Shown piece after piece: positions 30,611 through 41,157 of a stretch of DNA of 64,000 nucleotides. Both the position numbers and the translations under genes were made by a program. Position 1 is the stretch's first letter; each line of letters begins with the position of its first letter. The stretch spans positions 682,001-746,000 of the forward strand of contig NZ_JAGIXS010000001.1 in assembly GCF_030014915.1 (NCBI RefSeq), read 5' to 3'. The stretch is from Pelomonas sp. V22 (GTDB taxonomy: Bacteria; Pseudomonadota; Gammaproteobacteria; Burkholderiales; Burkholderiaceae_C). The notes below the pieces were generated by a model. It had not been told where the DNA came from. It searched no databases and saw only the letters and a program-made list of their open reading frames with translations.

Positions 30611-32014
30611 TCAGATGATGCGCGAGAACCGCGCGCGCTGCTGATCAGCCTGCAGATAGCGGTCGAACACCATGGCCACGGCGCGCACAAAGTACCAGCC
30701 CAGGGCCGTCACCTGGATGGCGCCGTCTTCCAGCTCCACCATGCCAGTCTCGGACAATGCGCGCAGCCGCTCCAGCTCGGGTGCGAAGTAACGCTTGAAG
30801 TCGACCAGATGCGCCAGCTCGATGGACTCGAACTCCACCCGACCCTGGCACATCAGCGCCATGATGACGGCGCGGCGCACCAGGTCGTCCCGGTTCAGCG
30901 CGAGGCCGCGCGTGACCGGCAGCTCATCCTGCCGCAGCGCGTCGTAGTACTCGGGCAGCGTCTTGACGCTCTGGCTGTAGGTGGCGCCCACGCGGCCGAT
31001 GCTGGAGACGCCAAGGCCGATCAGGTCGCAATCCGGCTGCGTGCTGTAGCCCTGGAAGTTGCGATGCAGCCGCCCCTGGCGCTTGGCCACGGCCAGCGAA
31101 TCGGTGGACAGCGCGAAGTGGTCCATGCCGATGTAGCTGTAGCCGTTCGAAAGAAAGCCGCCGATGGCGCCAGCGAGCATCTGGATCTTGTCGGCCGCCT
31201 GCGGCAGCTCGGCCGCGTCAATCCGGCGCTGCGGCTTGAATCGCTGCGGCAGATGAGCATAGCCGTAGAGCGCGATGCGGTCCGGCTTCAGGGCCGACAC
31301 CTGGGCCACCGTGCGGGCGAACGAGGTTGGCGTCTGCAACGGCAGGCCGTAGATCAGGTCCACGTTGATCGATTCGAAGCCGAGCGCGCGCGCCTCCTTC
31401 ATCAAGCTCACGACGCTGTCATGGCTCTGGATGCGGTGCACCGCCTTCTGCACCTCGGGATCGAAGTCCTGCACACCGAAGGACAGGCGGTTGAAGCCGA
31501 TCTTGCGCAGATGAGCCAGGCGTTCCGCGTTGACGGTGCGCGGGTCCACCTCGATGGACACCTCTGCCGTCGGCTGCAGGCGGAAGGCCTGGCGCAGGTC
31601 GGCCATCAAGGCCTCCAGCTCGCCATCATTCAGAAAGGTCGGCGAGCCGCCGCCGAAGTGCAGTTGCGACACCTGCGGCTGGCGGTCCAGGTGGCGCAGC
31701 GTCAGCGCCAGCTCCTTGCGCAGGGCCACCAGATACTCGCCGGCCCGCTCGTGGTGCTTGGTGATCACCTTGTTGCAGGCGCAGTAATAGCAGACCGATT
31801 CGCAGAACGGAATGTGCACATAGACCGACAGCGGCGCGCTGCCGCCGACCATGGCCTTGCGCTGCTCCAGTGCCTGGATGTACTCGGTCTCGCCAAAGGC
31901 CTCGACAAAGCGATCAGCGGTCGGGTAGGAGGTGTAGCGGGGCCCGGCAACGTCGAAGCGGCGCAGCAGGTCGGCATCGATGCCGGCGGGTGTTTCATGA
32001 AGCGTCTTGACCAT
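30611..32014 (-). CDS. hemN: Oxygen-independent coproporphyrinogen III oxidase
   Basis: A 467-residue radical-SAM enzyme that makes protoporphyrinogen IX from coproporphyrinogen III without oxygen. The cluster cysteines are C71, C75 and C78 (CESVCYYC), with the extra C80 seen in HemN. It also has GPRYTSYPTADRF, HFGGGSPTF, DLIYGLPLQTP and GMDHFAL. ATG 32014 fits the family N-terminus. It is divergent from fnr across a perfect FNR box, and upstream of the TauE/SafE gene. It provides heme for the neighbouring cbb3 oxidase under low oxygen. Confidence 0.96.
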   Translation of the reverse strand: MVKTLHETPAGIDADLLRRFDVAGPRYTSYPTADRFVEAFGETEYIQALEQRKAMVGGSAPLSVYVHIPFCESVCYYCACNKVITKHHERAGEYLVALRKELALTLRHLDRQPQVSQLHFGGGSPTFLNDGELEALMADLRQAFRLQPTAEVSIEVDPRTVNAERLAHLRKIGFNRLSFGVQDFDPEVQKAVHRIQSHDSVVSLMKEARALGFESINVDLIYGLPLQTPTSFARTVAQVSALKPDRIALYGYAHLPQRFKPQRRIDAAELPQAADKIQMLAGAIGGFLSNGYSYIGMDHFALSTDSLAVAKRQGRLHRNFQGYSTQPDCDLIGLGVSSIGRVGATYSQSVKTLPEYYDALRQDELPVTRGLALNRDDLVRRAVIMALMCQGRVEFESIELAHLVDFKRYFAPELERLRALSETGMVELEDGAIQVTALGWYFVRAVAMVFDRYLQADQQRARFSRII

Positions 32015-32048
32015 GAACGCTACTCTGCCAAGCGCACAGGGATGAGAC

Positions 32049-32062
32049 TTGATCCGCATCAA
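32049..32062. promoter_or_regulatory. FNR box between hemN and fnr
   Basis: A perfect palindromic TTGAT-CCGC-ATCAA. Toward fnr, an AACAAT -10-like hexamer lies exactly 22 bp beyond the box (32085-32090), as expected for a class II FNR promoter with the site near -41.5. Toward hemN the box ends only 34 bp before the ATG, and no good -10 is visible at the activating distance. Confidence 0.85.
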
Positions 32063-32112
32063 TCTCCCTGCGGGTGCGGCAACGAACAATGGCCCACACA
32101 TTGAGGATCATC

Positions 32113-32883
32113 ATGTTGACCGACACCGCCACGAGTGCCATGACCGCCACCAGCCCCATCAAGCCCGAACCCTTCAAGGTCGCCTGCTCCAGCTGCAATC
32201 TGCGCGAGCTGTGCCTGCCGGTGGGCCTGAGCCAGGAAAACATCGACCAGATCGACAGCCTCGTGGGCCAGCGCAAGCAGGTGCCGCGCGGCGAGGCCCT
32301 GTTCCGCACCGGCGACGTCTTCCAGTCGATCTTTGCGGTGCGCACCGGCTTCTTCAAGACCTGCGTGTCCTCGGAAGACGGCCGCGACCAGGTGACCGGC
32401 TTCCAGATGGCCGGCGAGCTGCTGGGCCTCGACGGCATCAGCGGCGACCGCCACAGCTGCGACGCCGTGGCGCTGGAGGATTCGCAGGTCTGCGTGATTC
32501 CGTTCAGCCGCCTGGAAGAACTCTCGCGCGAGTTCAACGAGCTGCAGCGCCAGTTCCACAAGATCATGAGCCGCGAGATTGTGCGCGACCATGGCGTGAT
32601 GCTGCTGCTCGGCTCGATGCGCGCTGAAGAGCGCCTCGCCGCCTTCCTCCTGAACCTCACGCAGCGCCTGCAGGCCCGCGGCTTCTCGGCCTCCAGCCTG
32701 GTGCTGCGCATGACGCGCGAAGAAATCGGCAGCTACCTCGGCCTCAAGCTCGAGACGGTCAGCCGCACCTTCTCCAAGTTCCAGGAAGACGGCCTGCTCG
32801 AGGTGAAGCAGCGCCAGATCCGCATCGTCAACCTGCCGGGCCTGCAACAGCTGGTCAACGGCACGAACTGCGCCGCCAACTAG
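32113..32883 (+). CDS. fnr: FNR-type oxygen-sensing transcriptional regulator
   Basis: A 256-residue Crp/FNR family regulator. The four 4Fe-4S ligands are C25, C28, C34 (CSSCNLRELC) and C116 (HSC). A cNMP-binding-like beta-roll follows. The C-terminal helix-turn-helix EEIGSYLGLKLETVSRTFSK contains the E..SR residues that read TTGAT. Anaerobically it should dimerise and activate cco and related genes. ATG 32113 has GAGG six bases upstream; the longer frame from 32074 would run through the promoter. An FNR box upstream implies autoregulation. Confidence 0.95.
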   Translation: MLTDTATSAMTATSPIKPEPFKVACSSCNLRELCLPVGLSQENIDQIDSLVGQRKQVPRGEALFRTGDVFQSIFAVRTGFFKTCVSSEDGRDQVTGFQMAGELLGLDGISGDRHSCDAVALEDSQVCVIPFSRLEELSREFNELQRQFHKIMSREIVRDHGVMLLLGSMRAEERLAAFLLNLTQRLQARGFSASSLVLRMTREEIGSYLGLKLETVSRTFSKFQEDGLLEVKQRQIRIVNLPGLQQLVNGTNCAAN

Positions 32884-36750: not shown

Positions 36751-38190
36751 TCAGGCGTGGGCCAGCACGGGCGGCACGGCCACCGGCGTGGTCTTGCCAG
36801 CCTGCACGGTCTTCACCACGTTCCAGGCCATGATCAGCATGCCGCTGAGGTACAGCAGGCCGCCGGTGAGGCGCACGACATAGAACGGATAGGTGGCCTT
36901 GACGCTCTCGACGAAGGTGTAGACCAGGGTGCCGTCCGGATTGACCGCACGCCACATCAGGCCTTGCATCACGCCGGCAATCCACATCGCGGCGATGTAG
37001 AGCACGATGCCCAGGGTCGCGATCCAGAAGTGCAGCTCGATGGCGCGCTTGCTGAACATCTCGGTGCGGCCATACATGCGCGGGATCAGGTGGTACAGGC
37101 AGCCCATCGAAATGAGGCCCACCCATCCGAGCGCACCGCTGTGCACGTGGCCGACGGTCCAGTCGGTGTAGTGCGAGAGCGCGTTGACCGTCTTGATCGA
37201 CATCATCGGACCCTCGAAGGTCGACATGCCATAGAAGGACAGCGAGACGATCAGGAACTTCAGGATGGGGTCGTCACGCAGCTTGTGCCAGGCCCCGCTC
37301 AGGGTCATGATGCCGTTGATCATGCCACCCCAGCTCGGCGCCAGCAGCACCAGCGAGAACACCATGCCCACGCTCTGCGCCCAGTCCGGCAGCGCCGTGT
37401 AGTGCAGGTGGTGGGGGCCCGCCCACATGTAGGTGAAGATCAGCGCCCAGAAGTGGACGATGGACAAGCGGTAGCTGTAGACCGGACGGCCAGCCTGCTT
37501 GGGGATGTAGTAGTACATCATCCCGAGGAAGCCGGCGGTCAGGAAGAAGCCGACGGCGTTATGGCCGTACCACCACTGCACCATCGCGTCCTGCACGCCG
37601 GCGTAGGCGGAGTAGCTCTTGAAGAGGTTCACAGGCAGTGCCGCGCTGTTGACCAGGTGCAGGAGCGCCACGGCAATGATGAAGGCGCCAAAGAACCAGT
37701 TGGCCACGTAGATGTGGCGGATCTTGCGCGTGCCCACGGTGCCGAAGAACACGATGGCATAGCTGACCCAGGCGACGGTGATCAAAAGATCAACCGGCCA
37801 CTCCAGCTCTGCATACTCCTTGCCGCTGGTGATGCCCAGTGGCAGCGAAACTGCTGCAGCAACGATCACCAACTGCCAGGCCCAGAAGGTGAACCAGGCC
37901 AGGCCAGGCGCAAACAGCCGCGTCTGGCCGGTGCGCTGAACCACGTGGTAGGACGTGGCGAACAGCGCGCAGCCCCCAAAGGCAAAAATCACCGCATTGG
38001 TGTGCAGCGGCCGCAGGCGGCCGTAGCTGAGCCAGGAGATGCCTCCCAGAAAATCGGGCCAGGCCAGTTGGGCGGCGATGATCACGCCCACCAACATTCC
38101 GACCACGCCCCAGAGGACCGCCGCCAGCGCGAATGCGCGGACCGGTCCGTCCTCGTAGTTGATCGCCGTACTCGGCGCAGTTTGGGCCAT
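36751..38190 (-). CDS. ccoN: cbb3-type cytochrome c oxidase subunit I (catalytic)
   Basis: A 479-residue heme-copper oxidase core that reduces O2 to water at high affinity and pumps protons. About 12 transmembrane helices carry the CuB and heme histidines, visible in [32 protein letters not shown] and [13 protein letters not shown]. The ATG at 38190 has AAGGAG 7 bp upstream. An FNR box and a spaced -10 lie just before it. It heads the structural operon ccoNOQP. Confidence 0.97.
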
Positions 38191-38197
38191 TGCCACA

Positions 38198-38203
38198 CTC
38201 CTT
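38198..38203 (-). promoter_or_regulatory. Strong ribosome binding site of ccoN
   Basis: AAGGAG 7 nt before ATG 38190. It decides for this ATG over the GTG two codons earlier, which would sit directly on the Shine-Dalgarno. Confidence 0.7.
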
Positions 38204-38230: not shown

Positions 38231-38236
38231 ATTGTT
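38231..38236 (-). promoter_or_regulatory. Candidate -10 of the ccoN promoter
   Basis: AACAAT on the minus strand, exactly 22 bp from the FNR box at 38259-38272. The same hexamer at the same spacing occurs upstream of fnr. It implies transcription start near 38224 and a leader of about 34 nt. Confidence 0.6.
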
Positions 38237-38246
38237 CGGTGGCCGC

Positions 38247-38417
38247 TCAGCGCGAGCCTTGATCGCCATCAACCACCGGCAAGTCATCGTCAATAATTCG
38301 CCCGCCTTCGCGCTCCAGGTCGTCCAACTGGCCACTGTTGAGCGCCCAGCCGAACAAGCCGATCAGCACCAGCACCAACAGCACCGACAGTGGGACGAGC
38401 AGGTAAAGGGATTCCAT
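38247..38417 (-). CDS. ccoS: cbb3-type oxidase maturation protein CcoS
   Basis: A 56-residue single-helix protein beginning MESLYLLVPLSVLLVLVLIG and followed by FGWALNSGQLDDLEREG, the CcoS family pattern. CcoS is needed for cofactor insertion into cbb3 oxidase in Rhodobacter. It starts 14 bp after ccoI. Its last codons contain the FNR box that serves ccoN. Confidence 0.92.
   Translation of the reverse strand: MESLYLLVPLSVLLVLVLIGLFGWALNSGQLDDLEREGGRIIDDDLPVVDGDQGSR
38259..38272. promoter_or_regulatory. FNR box upstream of ccoN, inside ccoS
   Basis: A perfect TTGAT-CGCC-ATCAA. It lies within the final codons of ccoS, about 69 bp before the ccoN start, and 22 bp from an AACAAT hexamer, which places it near -41.5 of the inferred ccoN start site. 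Confidence 0.88.
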
Positions 38418-38431
38418 CGCTCGCTTCCAGT

Positions 38432-40645
38432 TCAGTTTCTGCTCAGACGCAGGGCATTGGCCACCACGGCCAGCGAGCTCAGCGCCATCCCGAGGCCCGC
38501 CGCCCAGGGCGGCAGCCAGCCGGTGAGCGCCAAGGGCACACAAGCCAGGTTGTAGAGCGCCGCCCAGGCCAGGTTTTGTACAACCACGCGGCGCATGCGC
38601 AGGGCCAGCAGGCGCGCGCGCGGCAGCTCGGCCAGCCGTTCGCTGATCAAGACGGCATCGGCTTCGGCCCGGGCCAGCAAGGCGCCCTGCCCCATCACCA
38701 CGCTGGCATCTGCACGCGCCAGCACCGGCGCATCGTTGATGCCATCGCCGACCATCAAGACCTTGTGGCCAGCGGCCTGCAGCTCGGCCACCACAGCCAG
38801 CTTGCGCTCGGGGCTGGCGCCGGCGATGCAGCGCTGCACGCCGGCCGCCGCCGCCACACGCTCGACCCGCTCGGGCGCGTCGCCCGACAGCAGCAGGGTT
38901 TGCACGCCGGCGGCATGCCAGGCCGCCATGGCCTCGGCGGCGCCGGCTCGCAACTGTTCATCGAACTGCAGCCACAGCAAGACCTGACCCTCTTTACCGA
39001 ATGCCAACTGCGCCCGACCGTCCGAGGGATCGCGCCCCTCGCCCACCCAGGCTGGCGCGCCAAGGCGCCAGAGACGGCCGCTCAGGTCAAAAGCCTCGAG
39101 ACCTCGGCCCGGGAGTTCGCGCACGTCGCGCCAGTCGGCCTGCGCTTCGGGCCAGGCCCGCGACAGCGCCTGCGACAGCGGATGGCGCGACTGTGCCGCC
39201 AGTGCCGCAGCCTGCGCGGGCAAGCCGGCGTCGGCGCCCTCGGCCAGCCATTGCTGGCGCAGCTGCAGTTGCTCCTCGGTCAGTGTGCCAGTCTTGTCCA
39301 GCACCAGCATGTCGATCTCCGCCAGCGCCTCCAGCAACTCGGTGCGGCGCAGCAGCAAGCCGCGTCGCGCCAGCGCGCCGGTGGCTGCCACGCGGGCCGC
39401 CGGCGCCGCCAGCGACAGTGCGCAGGGGCAGGTGACGATCAGCACCGAAACCGCCACCCAGACCGCACGCCCCGGTTCATGCCACGACCACCAGGCTGCC
39501 GCCAACGCGGCCAGCAGCAAAACGACCCACAGGAAAGGTCCGGCCACGCGTTCGGCCAGCGCCACGCCGGCCGGCTTCTGGCTCAGCGCCTCGCGCATCA
39601 ACTGCACGATCGCCTCATAGCGGGTGTCGGTACCGACGCGCTCCACGCGCACCAGCAGCGGAGCATCGAGATTGAGGCTGCCGGCGACCACGCCGTCGCC
39701 CGGGCCCTTGGCCACCGGCAAGGACTCGCCATTGAGCAAGGCCTCGTTCACGGCACTGCAGCCCTGCTCCACCCGACCATCGGCCGCAAAAGCCTGGCCC
39801 GCGCAGACGCGCAGCAGGTCACCGGCGCGCAGCCGGCTCGGATGGATCTGCTCGCTGCGGCCTTCGGCATCGAGGCGCTCGGCCAGCTCGGGCAGCTTGA
39901 CCGCCGTACGCTCCAGCTCCTCAGCCGCGCGATGGCGCCAGCGCAACTCGAGGTAGCGCCCGGCCAGCAGGAAGCTGACGAACATGGTCAGTGAATCGAA
40001 ATAGACCTCGTGGCCGAACAAACCGCCGGGCTCGAAGGTGGCGCCGCTGCTGGCCACGAAGGCCACGATCAGGCCCAGGGCCACGGGCACGTCCATGCCC
40101 AGCTGGCGCTGGCGCAGTTGCCGCCAGGCACCGCTAAAGAAAGGCGTGGCCGAGAACAACAGCACTGGCAGGCTCAGCACCCATTCCCCCCATTGCAAGA
40201 GGCGCACCAGGTCGGGCGCCATCTCGCCGGGCTCGGCCCAGTAGATGGGTGCGGCGAGCATCATCACCTGCATCATCATGAAGCCGGCCACAAAGAGCCG
40301 CCACAGCGCCTGGCGTTGCTCGCGCTGGCGCAGTTGGCGGGCCTCGGCGGCCACATCGGGCACGGCGCCATAGCCGGCTTTCTCTATGGCCGCCACCAAG
40401 CGGGCCAGCGTGGTCTGGCCGGGCTGCCAGCGCAGGCTCAGCCGCGCTGCGGCCGCATGCACCGTGGCGGCCAACACGCCGGGCTCGGCCAGCAAGGCCC
40501 GCTCGACGATGCCGGCACAGGCCGCGCAATGCAGGCCCGAGAGCTGCAAGGCAGATAGCGCCTGCTCACCCTCCCAGCGCGTGAAGGGCGCCAGCAGGGC
40601 CGGATCGTCAGGAGGGGCTGGAATGGCGATGCTGGGTGCAGTCAT
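38432..40645 (-). CDS. ccoI: Copper-translocating P1B-type ATPase CcoI
   Basis: A 737-residue heavy-metal ATPase supplying copper for the cbb3 CuB centre. It has an N-terminal metal-binding domain with C40 and C43 (GLHCAACAG), eight predicted membrane helices, the intramembrane CPCALSLAAP motif, the phosphorylation site DKTGTLTEEQ and GDGINDAPVLARAD. ATG 40645 is used; a TTG six codons earlier is possible. It leads ccoS and is followed by the ccoN operon. An FNR-like site lies 60 bp upstream. Confidence 0.95.
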   Translation of the reverse strand: MTAPSIAIPAPPDDPALLAPFTRWEGEQALSALQLSGLHCAACAGIVERALLAEPGVLAATVHAAAARLSLRWQPGQTTLARLVAAIEKAGYGAVPDVAAEARQLRQREQRQALWRLFVAGFMMMQVMMLAAPIYWAEPGEMAPDLVRLLQWGEWVLSLPVLLFSATPFFSGAWRQLRQRQLGMDVPVALGLIVAFVASSGATFEPGGLFGHEVYFDSLTMFVSFLLAGRYLELRWRHRAAEELERTAVKLPELAERLDAEGRSEQIHPSRLRAGDLLRVCAGQAFAADGRVEQGCSAVNEALLNGESLPVAKGPGDGVVAGSLNLDAPLLVRVERVGTDTRYEAIVQLMREALSQKPAGVALAERVAGPFLWVVLLLAALAAAWWSWHEPGRAVWVAVSVLIVTCPCALSLAAPAARVAATGALARRGLLLRRTELLEALAEIDMLVLDKTGTLTEEQLQLRQQWLAEGADAGLPAQAAALAAQSRHPLSQALSRAWPEAQADWRDVRELPGRGLEAFDLSGRLWRLGAPAWVGEGRDPSDGRAQLAFGKEGQVLLWLQFDEQLRAGAAEAMAAWHAAGVQTLLLSGDAPERVERVAAAAGVQRCIAGASPERKLAVVAELQAAGHKVLMVGDGINDAPVLARADASVVMGQGALLARAEADAVLISERLAELPRARLLALRMRRVVVQNLAWAALYNLACVPLALTGWLPPWAAGLGMALSSLAVVANALRLSRN

Positions 40646-40677: not shown

Positions 40678-40683
40678 AATCTA
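40678..40683 (-). promoter_or_regulatory. Candidate -10 of the ccoI promoter
   Basis: TAGATT on the minus strand, 21 bp from the FNR-like box at 40705-40718. It overlaps a CATAAT hexamer on the plus strand (40675-40680) that could serve the divergent DUF192 gene. Confidence 0.4.
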
Positions 40684-40704: not shown

Positions 40705-40718
40705 ATGATTCAAATCAA
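40705..40718. promoter_or_regulatory. FNR-like box between ccoI and the DUF192 gene
   Basis: ATGAT-TCAA-ATCAA on the plus strand, nine of ten half-site positions matching TTGAT-N4-ATCAA. It is 60 bp upstream of the ccoI ATG, so it fits activation of ccoI. On the other strand it covers the start codon of the DUF192 gene. Confidence 0.7.
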
Positions 40719-41157
40719 GACTCGCGCCGGGGCCGGCCTCGCCCTCGCCTTGGCCTGCAGCGGGGTGTCGGCCCAGGACCATGCCCAGCAACTGCCCAGC
40801 ATCCAGCTCGGCGCCGGCATGCACCTGATCCAGGCCGAGGTGGCGCAGTCCGACGAGCAGCGCGCCATCGGCCTGATGCACCGGCCCAGCATGCCCGCCA
40901 ACAACGGCATGCTCTTCGTGTTCGAGCAGCCGCAGCCGCAGTGCTTCTGGATGAAGAACACCTTGCTGCCGCTGTCCATCGCCTTCATCGCCGACGACGG
41001 CACCATCGTCAACATCGAGGAGATGAAGGCCCAGACGCTGGACTCGCACTGCTCGGCCAAGCCGGTGCGCTATGCGCTCGAGATGAACACCGGCTGGTTT
41101 GCCAAGAAGGGCATCAAGCCCGGCACGAAGCTGCGCGGCAAGCCCTGGGGGCAATGA
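40705..41157 (+). CDS. DUF192 family exported protein
   Basis: A 150-residue protein with a signal peptide (IKTRAGAGLALALACSGVSA) and a DUF192 domain recognised by GLMHRPSMPANNGMLFVFE, CFWMKNTLLPLSIAFI and NIEEMKAQT. Family function is unknown. ATG 40705 leaves a normal signal peptide; the frame upstream to 40636 would add a non-hydrophobic leader. No Shine-Dalgarno is obvious. The start codon lies within the FNR-like box, so FNR bound for ccoI might block this gene. Confidence 0.85.
   Translation: MIQIKTRAGAGLALALACSGVSAQDHAQQLPSIQLGAGMHLIQAEVAQSDEQRAIGLMHRPSMPANNGMLFVFEQPQPQCFWMKNTLLPLSIAFIADDGTIVNIEEMKAQTLDSHCSAKPVRYALEMNTGWFAKKGIKPGTKLRGKPWGQ

What the first reader, a model, noticed from the sequence alone, without database searches (positions are those of the whole stretch)
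38231..38272. Matched FNR-box and -10 architecture at ccoN and fnr
Seen directly: perfect TTGAT-N4-ATCAA boxes at 38259-38272 and 32049-32062, each followed after exactly 22 bp by the same hexamer AACAAT. Class II FNR promoters place the box near -41.5, which this spacing gives. Two independent occurrences are strong internal evidence for a real promoter pair. The ccoN box lies inside the ccoS coding region.
Basis: partly seen in the sequence, partly recalled or inferred. Interest (0 to 1): 0.6.

Follow-up and report, generated by a model that had tools for sequence, protein, structure and literature searches.

The report
Oxygen-switch promoters of ccoN, fnr, hemN
The two sites look like ordinary, strongly conserved low-oxygen switches (FNR-activated promoters) for a high-affinity oxidase and for the oxygen sensor's own gene, and the sensor's site probably also drives a neighbouring heme gene in the opposite direction.

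Summary
Of nine perfect boxes in the own genome (18 sides), only these two have that hexamer at that gap. Relatives show that these are promoters. At ccoN, 63 of 63 loci have a box (up to 2 mismatches) with xAxA(A/C)T 21-22 bp downstream; five control spacings give at most 1 of 63. At fnr, 64 of 108 do (controls 0-5). The class II FNR reading is supported; expression was not tested.

(1) The fnr box is shared with divergent hemN: a -10 stands 21-22 bp on its other side in 80 of 90 loci, and in 58 of 90 (window included) the hemN ATG lies 0-3 nt from the predicted start, so a leaderless hemN mRNA is predicted. (2) ccoI has a third, weaker site. (3) The box inside ccoS is translated in one frame as a (D/E)xxQ motif in 41 of 42 loci; in six others its TGA is the ccoS stop.

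My idea that FNR promoters specifically lack T at -12 failed a control. New member of a known kind.

The parts
38259..38272 (.). FNR box of the ccoN promoter, perfect palindrome, inside ccoS
   Evidence: conserved with its -10 in 63 of 63 ccoN loci, up to 2 mismatches
38231..38236 (-). -10 hexamer AACAAT of ccoN, gap 22; predicted start site 38224
   Evidence: start site follows from geometry, not measured
38188..38202 (-). ccoN start codon (ATG 38190-38188) with Shine-Dalgarno AGGAG (38202-38198)
   Evidence: sequence
36751..38190 (-). ccoN, cbb3 oxidase subunit I
   Evidence: TIGR00780 above cut-off
38247..38417 (-). ccoS, whose 3' end contains the ccoN box
   Evidence: TIGR00847 above cut-off, covers residues 1-45 of 56
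32049..32062 (.). FNR box between fnr and hemN, shared by two divergent promoters
32085..32090 (+). -10 hexamer AACAAT of fnr, gap 22; predicted start site 32097
32113..32883 (+). fnr (P0001), with GAGGA at 32103-32107 before the ATG
   Evidence: NF008365 above cut-off; aligns with solved FNR
32022..32031 (-). extended -10 TTGGCAGAGT of hemN, hexamer CAGAGT at gap 21; predicted start site 32015
30611..32014 (-). hemN, oxygen-independent coproporphyrinogen III oxidase; ATG one base after the predicted start site
   Evidence: TIGR00538 above cut-off; leader length
40705..40718 (.). one-mismatch FNR box upstream of ccoI
40678..40683 (-). -10-like TAGATT of ccoI, gap 21
   Evidence: TAGATT at gap 20-23 after a box (up to 2 mismatches) in 25 of 61 loci, at gaps 26-29 in 1 of 61
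38435..40645 (-). ccoI, copper-type P-type ATPase
   Evidence: TIGR01525 and TIGR01511 above cut-off

Best explanation
These are class II FNR-dependent sigma70 promoters. When oxygen falls, the Fnr of this cluster gains its iron-sulfur cluster, dimerises, binds TTGAT-N4-ATCAA centred at -41.5 and recruits RNA polymerase to a weak -10 (AACAAT). This switches on the cbb3 oxidase operon from a promoter inside ccoS, and activates fnr itself. The fnr box also faces hemN: a conserved extended -10 on its other side puts FNR near -40.5 for hemN, so one FNR dimer probably serves two back-to-back class II promoters, and the hemN mRNA probably begins at its ATG. Shown: sequence, spacing, conservation, identity of genes and regulator. 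Inferred: start sites, FNR binding, activation rather than repression, oxygen response, leaderless translation.
For: Exact sites. ccoN: 63 of 63 loci with box and -10 at gap 21-22, control gaps 0, 0, 0, 0 and 1 of 63. fnr: 64 of 108, control gaps 1, 0, 5, 2 and 0 of 108. Family scan: perfect box + N22 + NANAAT at 45 places in 38 of 150 genomes, reversed pattern in 0 of 150. hemN side: -10 in 80 of 90 loci, both -10s in 57 of 90. Regulator is Fnr. In Herbaspirillum the fnr1 promoter has its site at -42, is class II and auto-activated, and fixNOP is a direct Fnr1 target (passages). The cld promoter of Ideonella dechloratans is FNR-dependent with the -10 placed from 41.5 (passages).
Against: No expression or start-site data. 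44 of 108 fnr loci fail the test. Ideonella dechloratans fnr mRNA was equal with and without oxygen (passage), and E. coli fnr is negatively autoregulated (same passage), so autoactivation is the weakest step. AACAAT is only 4 of 6 to TATAAT. The genome has 8 matches to this protein family. Two further own-genome places with box-like sequence and NANAAT at gap 22 had no obvious gene in my brief look. Many of the loci are closely related, so counts are not independent events.
Confidence: 0.88

Rival explanations
1. The boxes are read mainly by another Crp/Fnr paralogue (Dnr-, FixK- or CRP-like) rather than by the Fnr of this cluster.
For: The own genome has 8 matches to the Fnr protein at E <= 0.001, itself included. 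In Herbaspirillum two Fnr proteins act together at fnr1 (passages).
Against: The box is the FNR consensus as printed in PMC7349173, and the Fnr gene is in the same cluster in the relatives fetched with it.
Confidence: 0.1
2. At fnr the box mainly represses, as in E. coli; activation acts only at hemN.
For: E. coli fnr is negatively autoregulated from a site over the start (passage). A polymerase on the hemN side could block fnr. 44 of 108 fnr loci lack the class II arrangement at fnr, whereas the hemN -10 is present in 80 of 90 loci.
Against: The fnr -10 sits at the activating distance in 64 of 108 loci, not over the box; Herbaspirillum fnr1 is auto-activated.
Confidence: 0.12
3. The hexamers are chance matches and the promoters lie elsewhere.
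For: Only two sites in one window, and a hexamer that is 4 of 6 to consensus.
Against: Conservation at one spacing in 63 of 63 ccoN loci and near absence at control spacings.
Confidence: 0.02

Closest known systems
Class II FNR promoters of E. coli (narG, dmsA, nirB, nrfA, narK)
   Same: Box near -41.5: 19 of 23 FNR-activated promoters with known start are within 4 nt of it (passage of PMC3688515).
   Different: Other genes; there measured, here inferred.
Herbaspirillum seropedicae fnr1 and fixNOP promoters
   Same: Fnr site at -42 at fnr1, auto-activation, cbb3 operon a direct Fnr1 target next to fnr1 (passages of PMC5934665).
   Different: Three Fnr proteins there; a shared box with hemN and a box inside ccoS were not seen in the passages read.
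Ideonella dechloratans cld promoter
   Same: FNR-dependent class II promoter; -10 region placed 41.5 bp from the box centre and needed for activity; -12 is G, not T (passages of PMC7349173).
   Different: Gene on a transposon, tested in E. coli; the fnr mRNA of that strain did not change with oxygen.
Rubrivivax gelatinosus FnrL control of hemN
   Same: HemN responds to oxygen through FnrL (passage of the review PMC4500134; the primary paper was not read).
   Different: Promoter anatomy was not seen.
CRP at a single target activating divergent promoters (El-Robh and Busby 2002)
   Same: Precedent for one dimer of this protein family serving two divergent promoters (title seen in a reference list only).
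   Different: E. coli CRP; here FNR at an fnr/hemN pair, from sequence alone.

Membership tests
Class II FNR-activated promoter | Box TTGAT-N4-ATCAA | tested here: met
   perfect at both sites
Class II FNR-activated promoter | Box centre about 41.5 bp before the start, i.e. 22 bp from box to -10 | tested here: met
   gap 22 at both sites; 63 of 63 ccoN and 64 of 108 fnr loci at gap 21-22; the start itself is inferred
Class II FNR-activated promoter | FNR-dependent, low-oxygen activation | not testable with these tools
   needs expression data
FNR (iron-sulfur oxygen sensor) | Fnr protein family | tested here: met
   NF008365, 238.4 bits against a cut-off of 228
FNR (iron-sulfur oxygen sensor) | Four cysteine ligands and E-x-x-S-R in the recognition helix | tested here: met
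   C25, C28, C34, C127 and ETVSR align with the same residues of solved FNR; which residues are ligands is recalled
Divergent promoter pair on one activator site | A -10 at class II distance on both sides of one box | tested here: met
   57 of 90 loci by the patterns used, window included by sequence
Divergent promoter pair on one activator site | Both promoters need the one site | not testable with these tools
   needs two-way reporters
Leaderless mRNA (hemN) | Start codon at the 5' end, no Shine-Dalgarno | tested here: inconclusive
   predicted leader 0-3 nt in 58 of 90 loci, Shine-Dalgarno-like motif in 1 of the 58; 13 of 90 have 15-22 nt, 10 of the 13 with a motif; 7 others, 12 undetermined. 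Starts are predicted, not measured

The most novel reading that the evidence does not exclude
One FNR dimer between fnr and hemN serves two back-to-back class II promoters that cannot both hold RNA polymerase at once, so sensor autoactivation and heme synthesis compete for one switch, and hemN is translated from a leaderless mRNA in this clade. At ccoN the operator is also protein-coding: the C-terminal (D/E)xxQ motif of CcoS is the FNR box translated, and in the other frame the box's own TGA ends CcoS.
Probability: 0.45. Interest if true: 0.45.

Novelty: new member of a known kind. Interest (0 to 1): 0.3.

Why it matters
It gives base-level, testable promoter maps, with predicted start sites, for the oxygen switch of a group of betaproteobacteria. 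It suggests that heme synthesis and the oxygen sensor share one operator, and it is a warning that a conserved peptide motif (the CcoS tail) can be the shadow of a DNA-binding site rather than a protein function.

Tried and rejected
Idea: FNR promoters specifically avoid T at -12. None of the 45 places listed begins with T. Control: the -10 of rnpB, whose RNA start is given by the Rfam model, read in 27 of the 30 loci fetched (40 of 40 genomes matched; three loci, L159, L174 and L188, dropped because they lie near contig ends and their match is not at 1501). It is GATAAT 23, GACAAT 2, GATACT 1, CATAAT 1. T is missing there too, while the ccoI promoters have TAGATT, so the idea was dropped. An earlier control (TTGACA-N17-NANAAT, matches in 20 of 30 genomes) was not informative: T at -12 was rare there as well, and many hits are probably not promoters.

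Idea: TTGGCAC on the hemN side is a sigma54 -24 element. Rejected by eye on the rows: no TTGC-like -12 element at the right distance in the rows I checked (consensus recalled; no count made).

Class-wide search (370 genomes): perfect box + N22 + NANAAT in 122 of 370; the list was cut, the reversed pattern also scores in a few genomes, and hexamers beginning with T do occur there. No tally was made and nothing is built on it.

One-mismatch boxes genome-wide (133 against 11 for the reversed pattern) were not followed; the list was cut.

Literature: no paper on a shared fnr-hemN box, a leaderless hemN or a CcoS tail as translated operator appeared in the listings (open-licence library only; the lists were shorter than the number of papers found). 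Passages were read in five papers, none in full. This does not prove absence.

Full report
Observation. Two perfect boxes in 64 kb compare with 0.02 expected. The own genome has nine perfect boxes and the reversed pattern one. On the 18 sides of these boxes AACAAT stands at gap 22 only at the two sites of the finding. A looser search (TTGA-N6-TCAA, then AANAAT at any gap of 10-36) finds six places in the genome; three are at gap 22, among them both sites of the finding, and the reversed pattern gives none. With NANAAT at gap 22 exactly there are four places, again including both; the other two had no obvious gene in my brief look.

Genes. NCBIfam names CcoN, CcoO, CcoP, CcoG, CcoS, HemN and Fnr above cut-off, and the ccoI product as a copper-type P-type ATPase. 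Of the 80 relatives fetched with the Fnr protein, hemN is found in 76, ccoN in 67 and ccoI in 62 on the same stretch; several stretches end at contig ends. Titles include Roseateles, Paucibacter, Rubrivivax, Leptothrix, Sphaerotilus, Rhodoferax and Limnohabitans, many of them metagenome bins. By Fnr identity the window is nearest to Roseateles- and Paucibacter-like bacteria; its species was not determined.

Conservation at ccoN. Sixty-three loci (window included) have ccoN with enough upstream sequence. Fifty-five have a box with at most one mismatch, 24 of them perfect, and each of the other eight has a two-mismatch box with the -10 in place. All 63 have a box (up to 2 mismatches) with xAxA(A/C)T at gap 21-22; the same test at gaps 15-16, 18-19, 25-26, 28-29 and 31-32 gives 0, 0, 0, 0 and 1 of 63. 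In 51 non-redundant sequences the columns -12, -11, -9, -8 and -7 carry 1.0 to 2.3 bits, the -10 column itself does not (0.09), and the spacer is at most about 0.35 bits per column. The hexamer is AACAAT or AAGAAT in 30 of 50 non-redundant loci; GATACT, GACACT and CAAACT occur in more distant ones.

Conservation at fnr. Of 108 loci (window included, its duplicate L016 left out), 73 have a box with at most one mismatch, 15 perfect. Sixty-four of 108 have a box (up to 2 mismatches) with xAxA(A/C)T at gap 21-22; the control gaps give 1, 0, 5, 2 and 0. So 44 of 108 fail and the arrangement is common, not universal, at fnr. Several loci are near-duplicates and all are related, so these counts are not independent events.

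Family scan. Perfect box + N22 + NANAAT occurs at 45 places in 38 of 150 genomes of the family; the reversed pattern in none of the 150.

The shared box. On the hemN side of the fnr box stands an extended -10, consensus TTGGCACAGT, with its hexamer at gap 21-22. Ninety loci could be tested (16 dropped for lack of a box, 4 for lack of hemN, L016 as duplicate): 80 have a match there, 64 have the fnr -10 and 57 have both. Among 65 non-redundant loci the ACAGT-like core occurs 39 and 17 times at the two expected adjacent positions; the mean over gaps 5-59, peaks included, is 1.22. In 58 of 90 loci, the window included, the first in-frame ATG after the -10 lies 0-3 nt from the predicted start, and only 1 of the 58 has a Shine-Dalgarno-like motif. 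In 13 of 90 it lies 15-22 nt away and 10 of the 13 have one; 7 have other lengths and 12 could not be given one. The element keeps its distance to the box and not to the ATG, which speaks for a promoter element and against a translation signal. Hence the prediction of a leaderless hemN mRNA.

The ccoS overlap. Of 63 loci with ccoI and ccoN, 4 had no recognisable ccoS anchor. In the other 59 the box lies inside ccoS in 42, the TGA of TTGAT is the ccoS stop codon in 6, ccoS ends elsewhere in the box in 1 and before the box in 10. Of the 42, 41 are in one frame and 41 have a (V,I,F,L,A)-(D,E)-x-x-Q motif. An earlier count with another ccoS finder and boxes of at most one mismatch gave 40 of 53 inside. 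TIGR00847 covers residues 1-45 of the window's 56-residue CcoS, not this tail.

ccoI. A one-mismatch box at 40705-40718 is followed on the minus strand by TAGATT at gap 21. A box (up to 2 mismatches) with TAGATT at gap 20-23 occurs in 25 of 61 loci, at gaps 26-29 in 1 of 61.

Regulator. P0001 aligns over most of its length with solved FNR; cysteines 25, 28, 34 and 127 and the ETVSR stretch have counterparts there. That these are the ligand and recognition residues is recalled. The own genome has 8 matches to this protein, itself included.

Failed control. The missing T at -12 is not special to FNR promoters: in 27 usable rnpB loci the -10 is GATAAT 23, GACAAT 2, GATACT 1 and CATAAT 1.

Comparison. 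In E. coli 19 of 23 FNR-activated promoters with known starts are class II (passage of PMC3688515). Herbaspirillum fnr1 is class II at -42 and auto-activated, and fixNOP is a direct Fnr1 target (passages of PMC5934665). The Ideonella dechloratans cld promoter is FNR-dependent in a class II arrangement, but fnr mRNA there was equal with and without oxygen, and E. coli fnr is negatively autoregulated (passages of PMC7349173), so autoactivation in the window is the least certain step. The finding is a well-conserved new member of a known kind; the shared fnr-hemN box with a leaderless hemN, and the operator read as CcoS tail, are small additions not seen in the searches listed under Tried and rejected.

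Noticed in passing
L160-L187 (rnpB loci): The -10 of rnpB is GATAAT in 23 of 27 usable loci, with G and not T at -12: a housekeeping -10 that departs from the textbook consensus.
   Followed up: partly
32089-32112: An in-frame ATG at 32089 overlaps the fnr -10 hexamer and lies before the predicted start site, so a gene caller could start fnr too early.
   Followed up: no
40705-40718: The ccoI box overlaps the ATG of the small gene on the + strand (40705-41157; no NCBIfam match), so operator and start codon share bases.
   Followed up: no
L005:1501-1560 (own genome C2:546483): Another perfect FNR box, with CACAAT at gap 21, stands before a gene that reads like a SulP-type transporter (label recalled, from the sequence).
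   Followed up: no
L007:1501-1700 (own genome C7:20378): A perfect FNR box lies upstream of a gene that reads like a copper P-type ATPase with heavy-metal-binding repeats (label recalled); its -10 is unclear.
   Followed up: no
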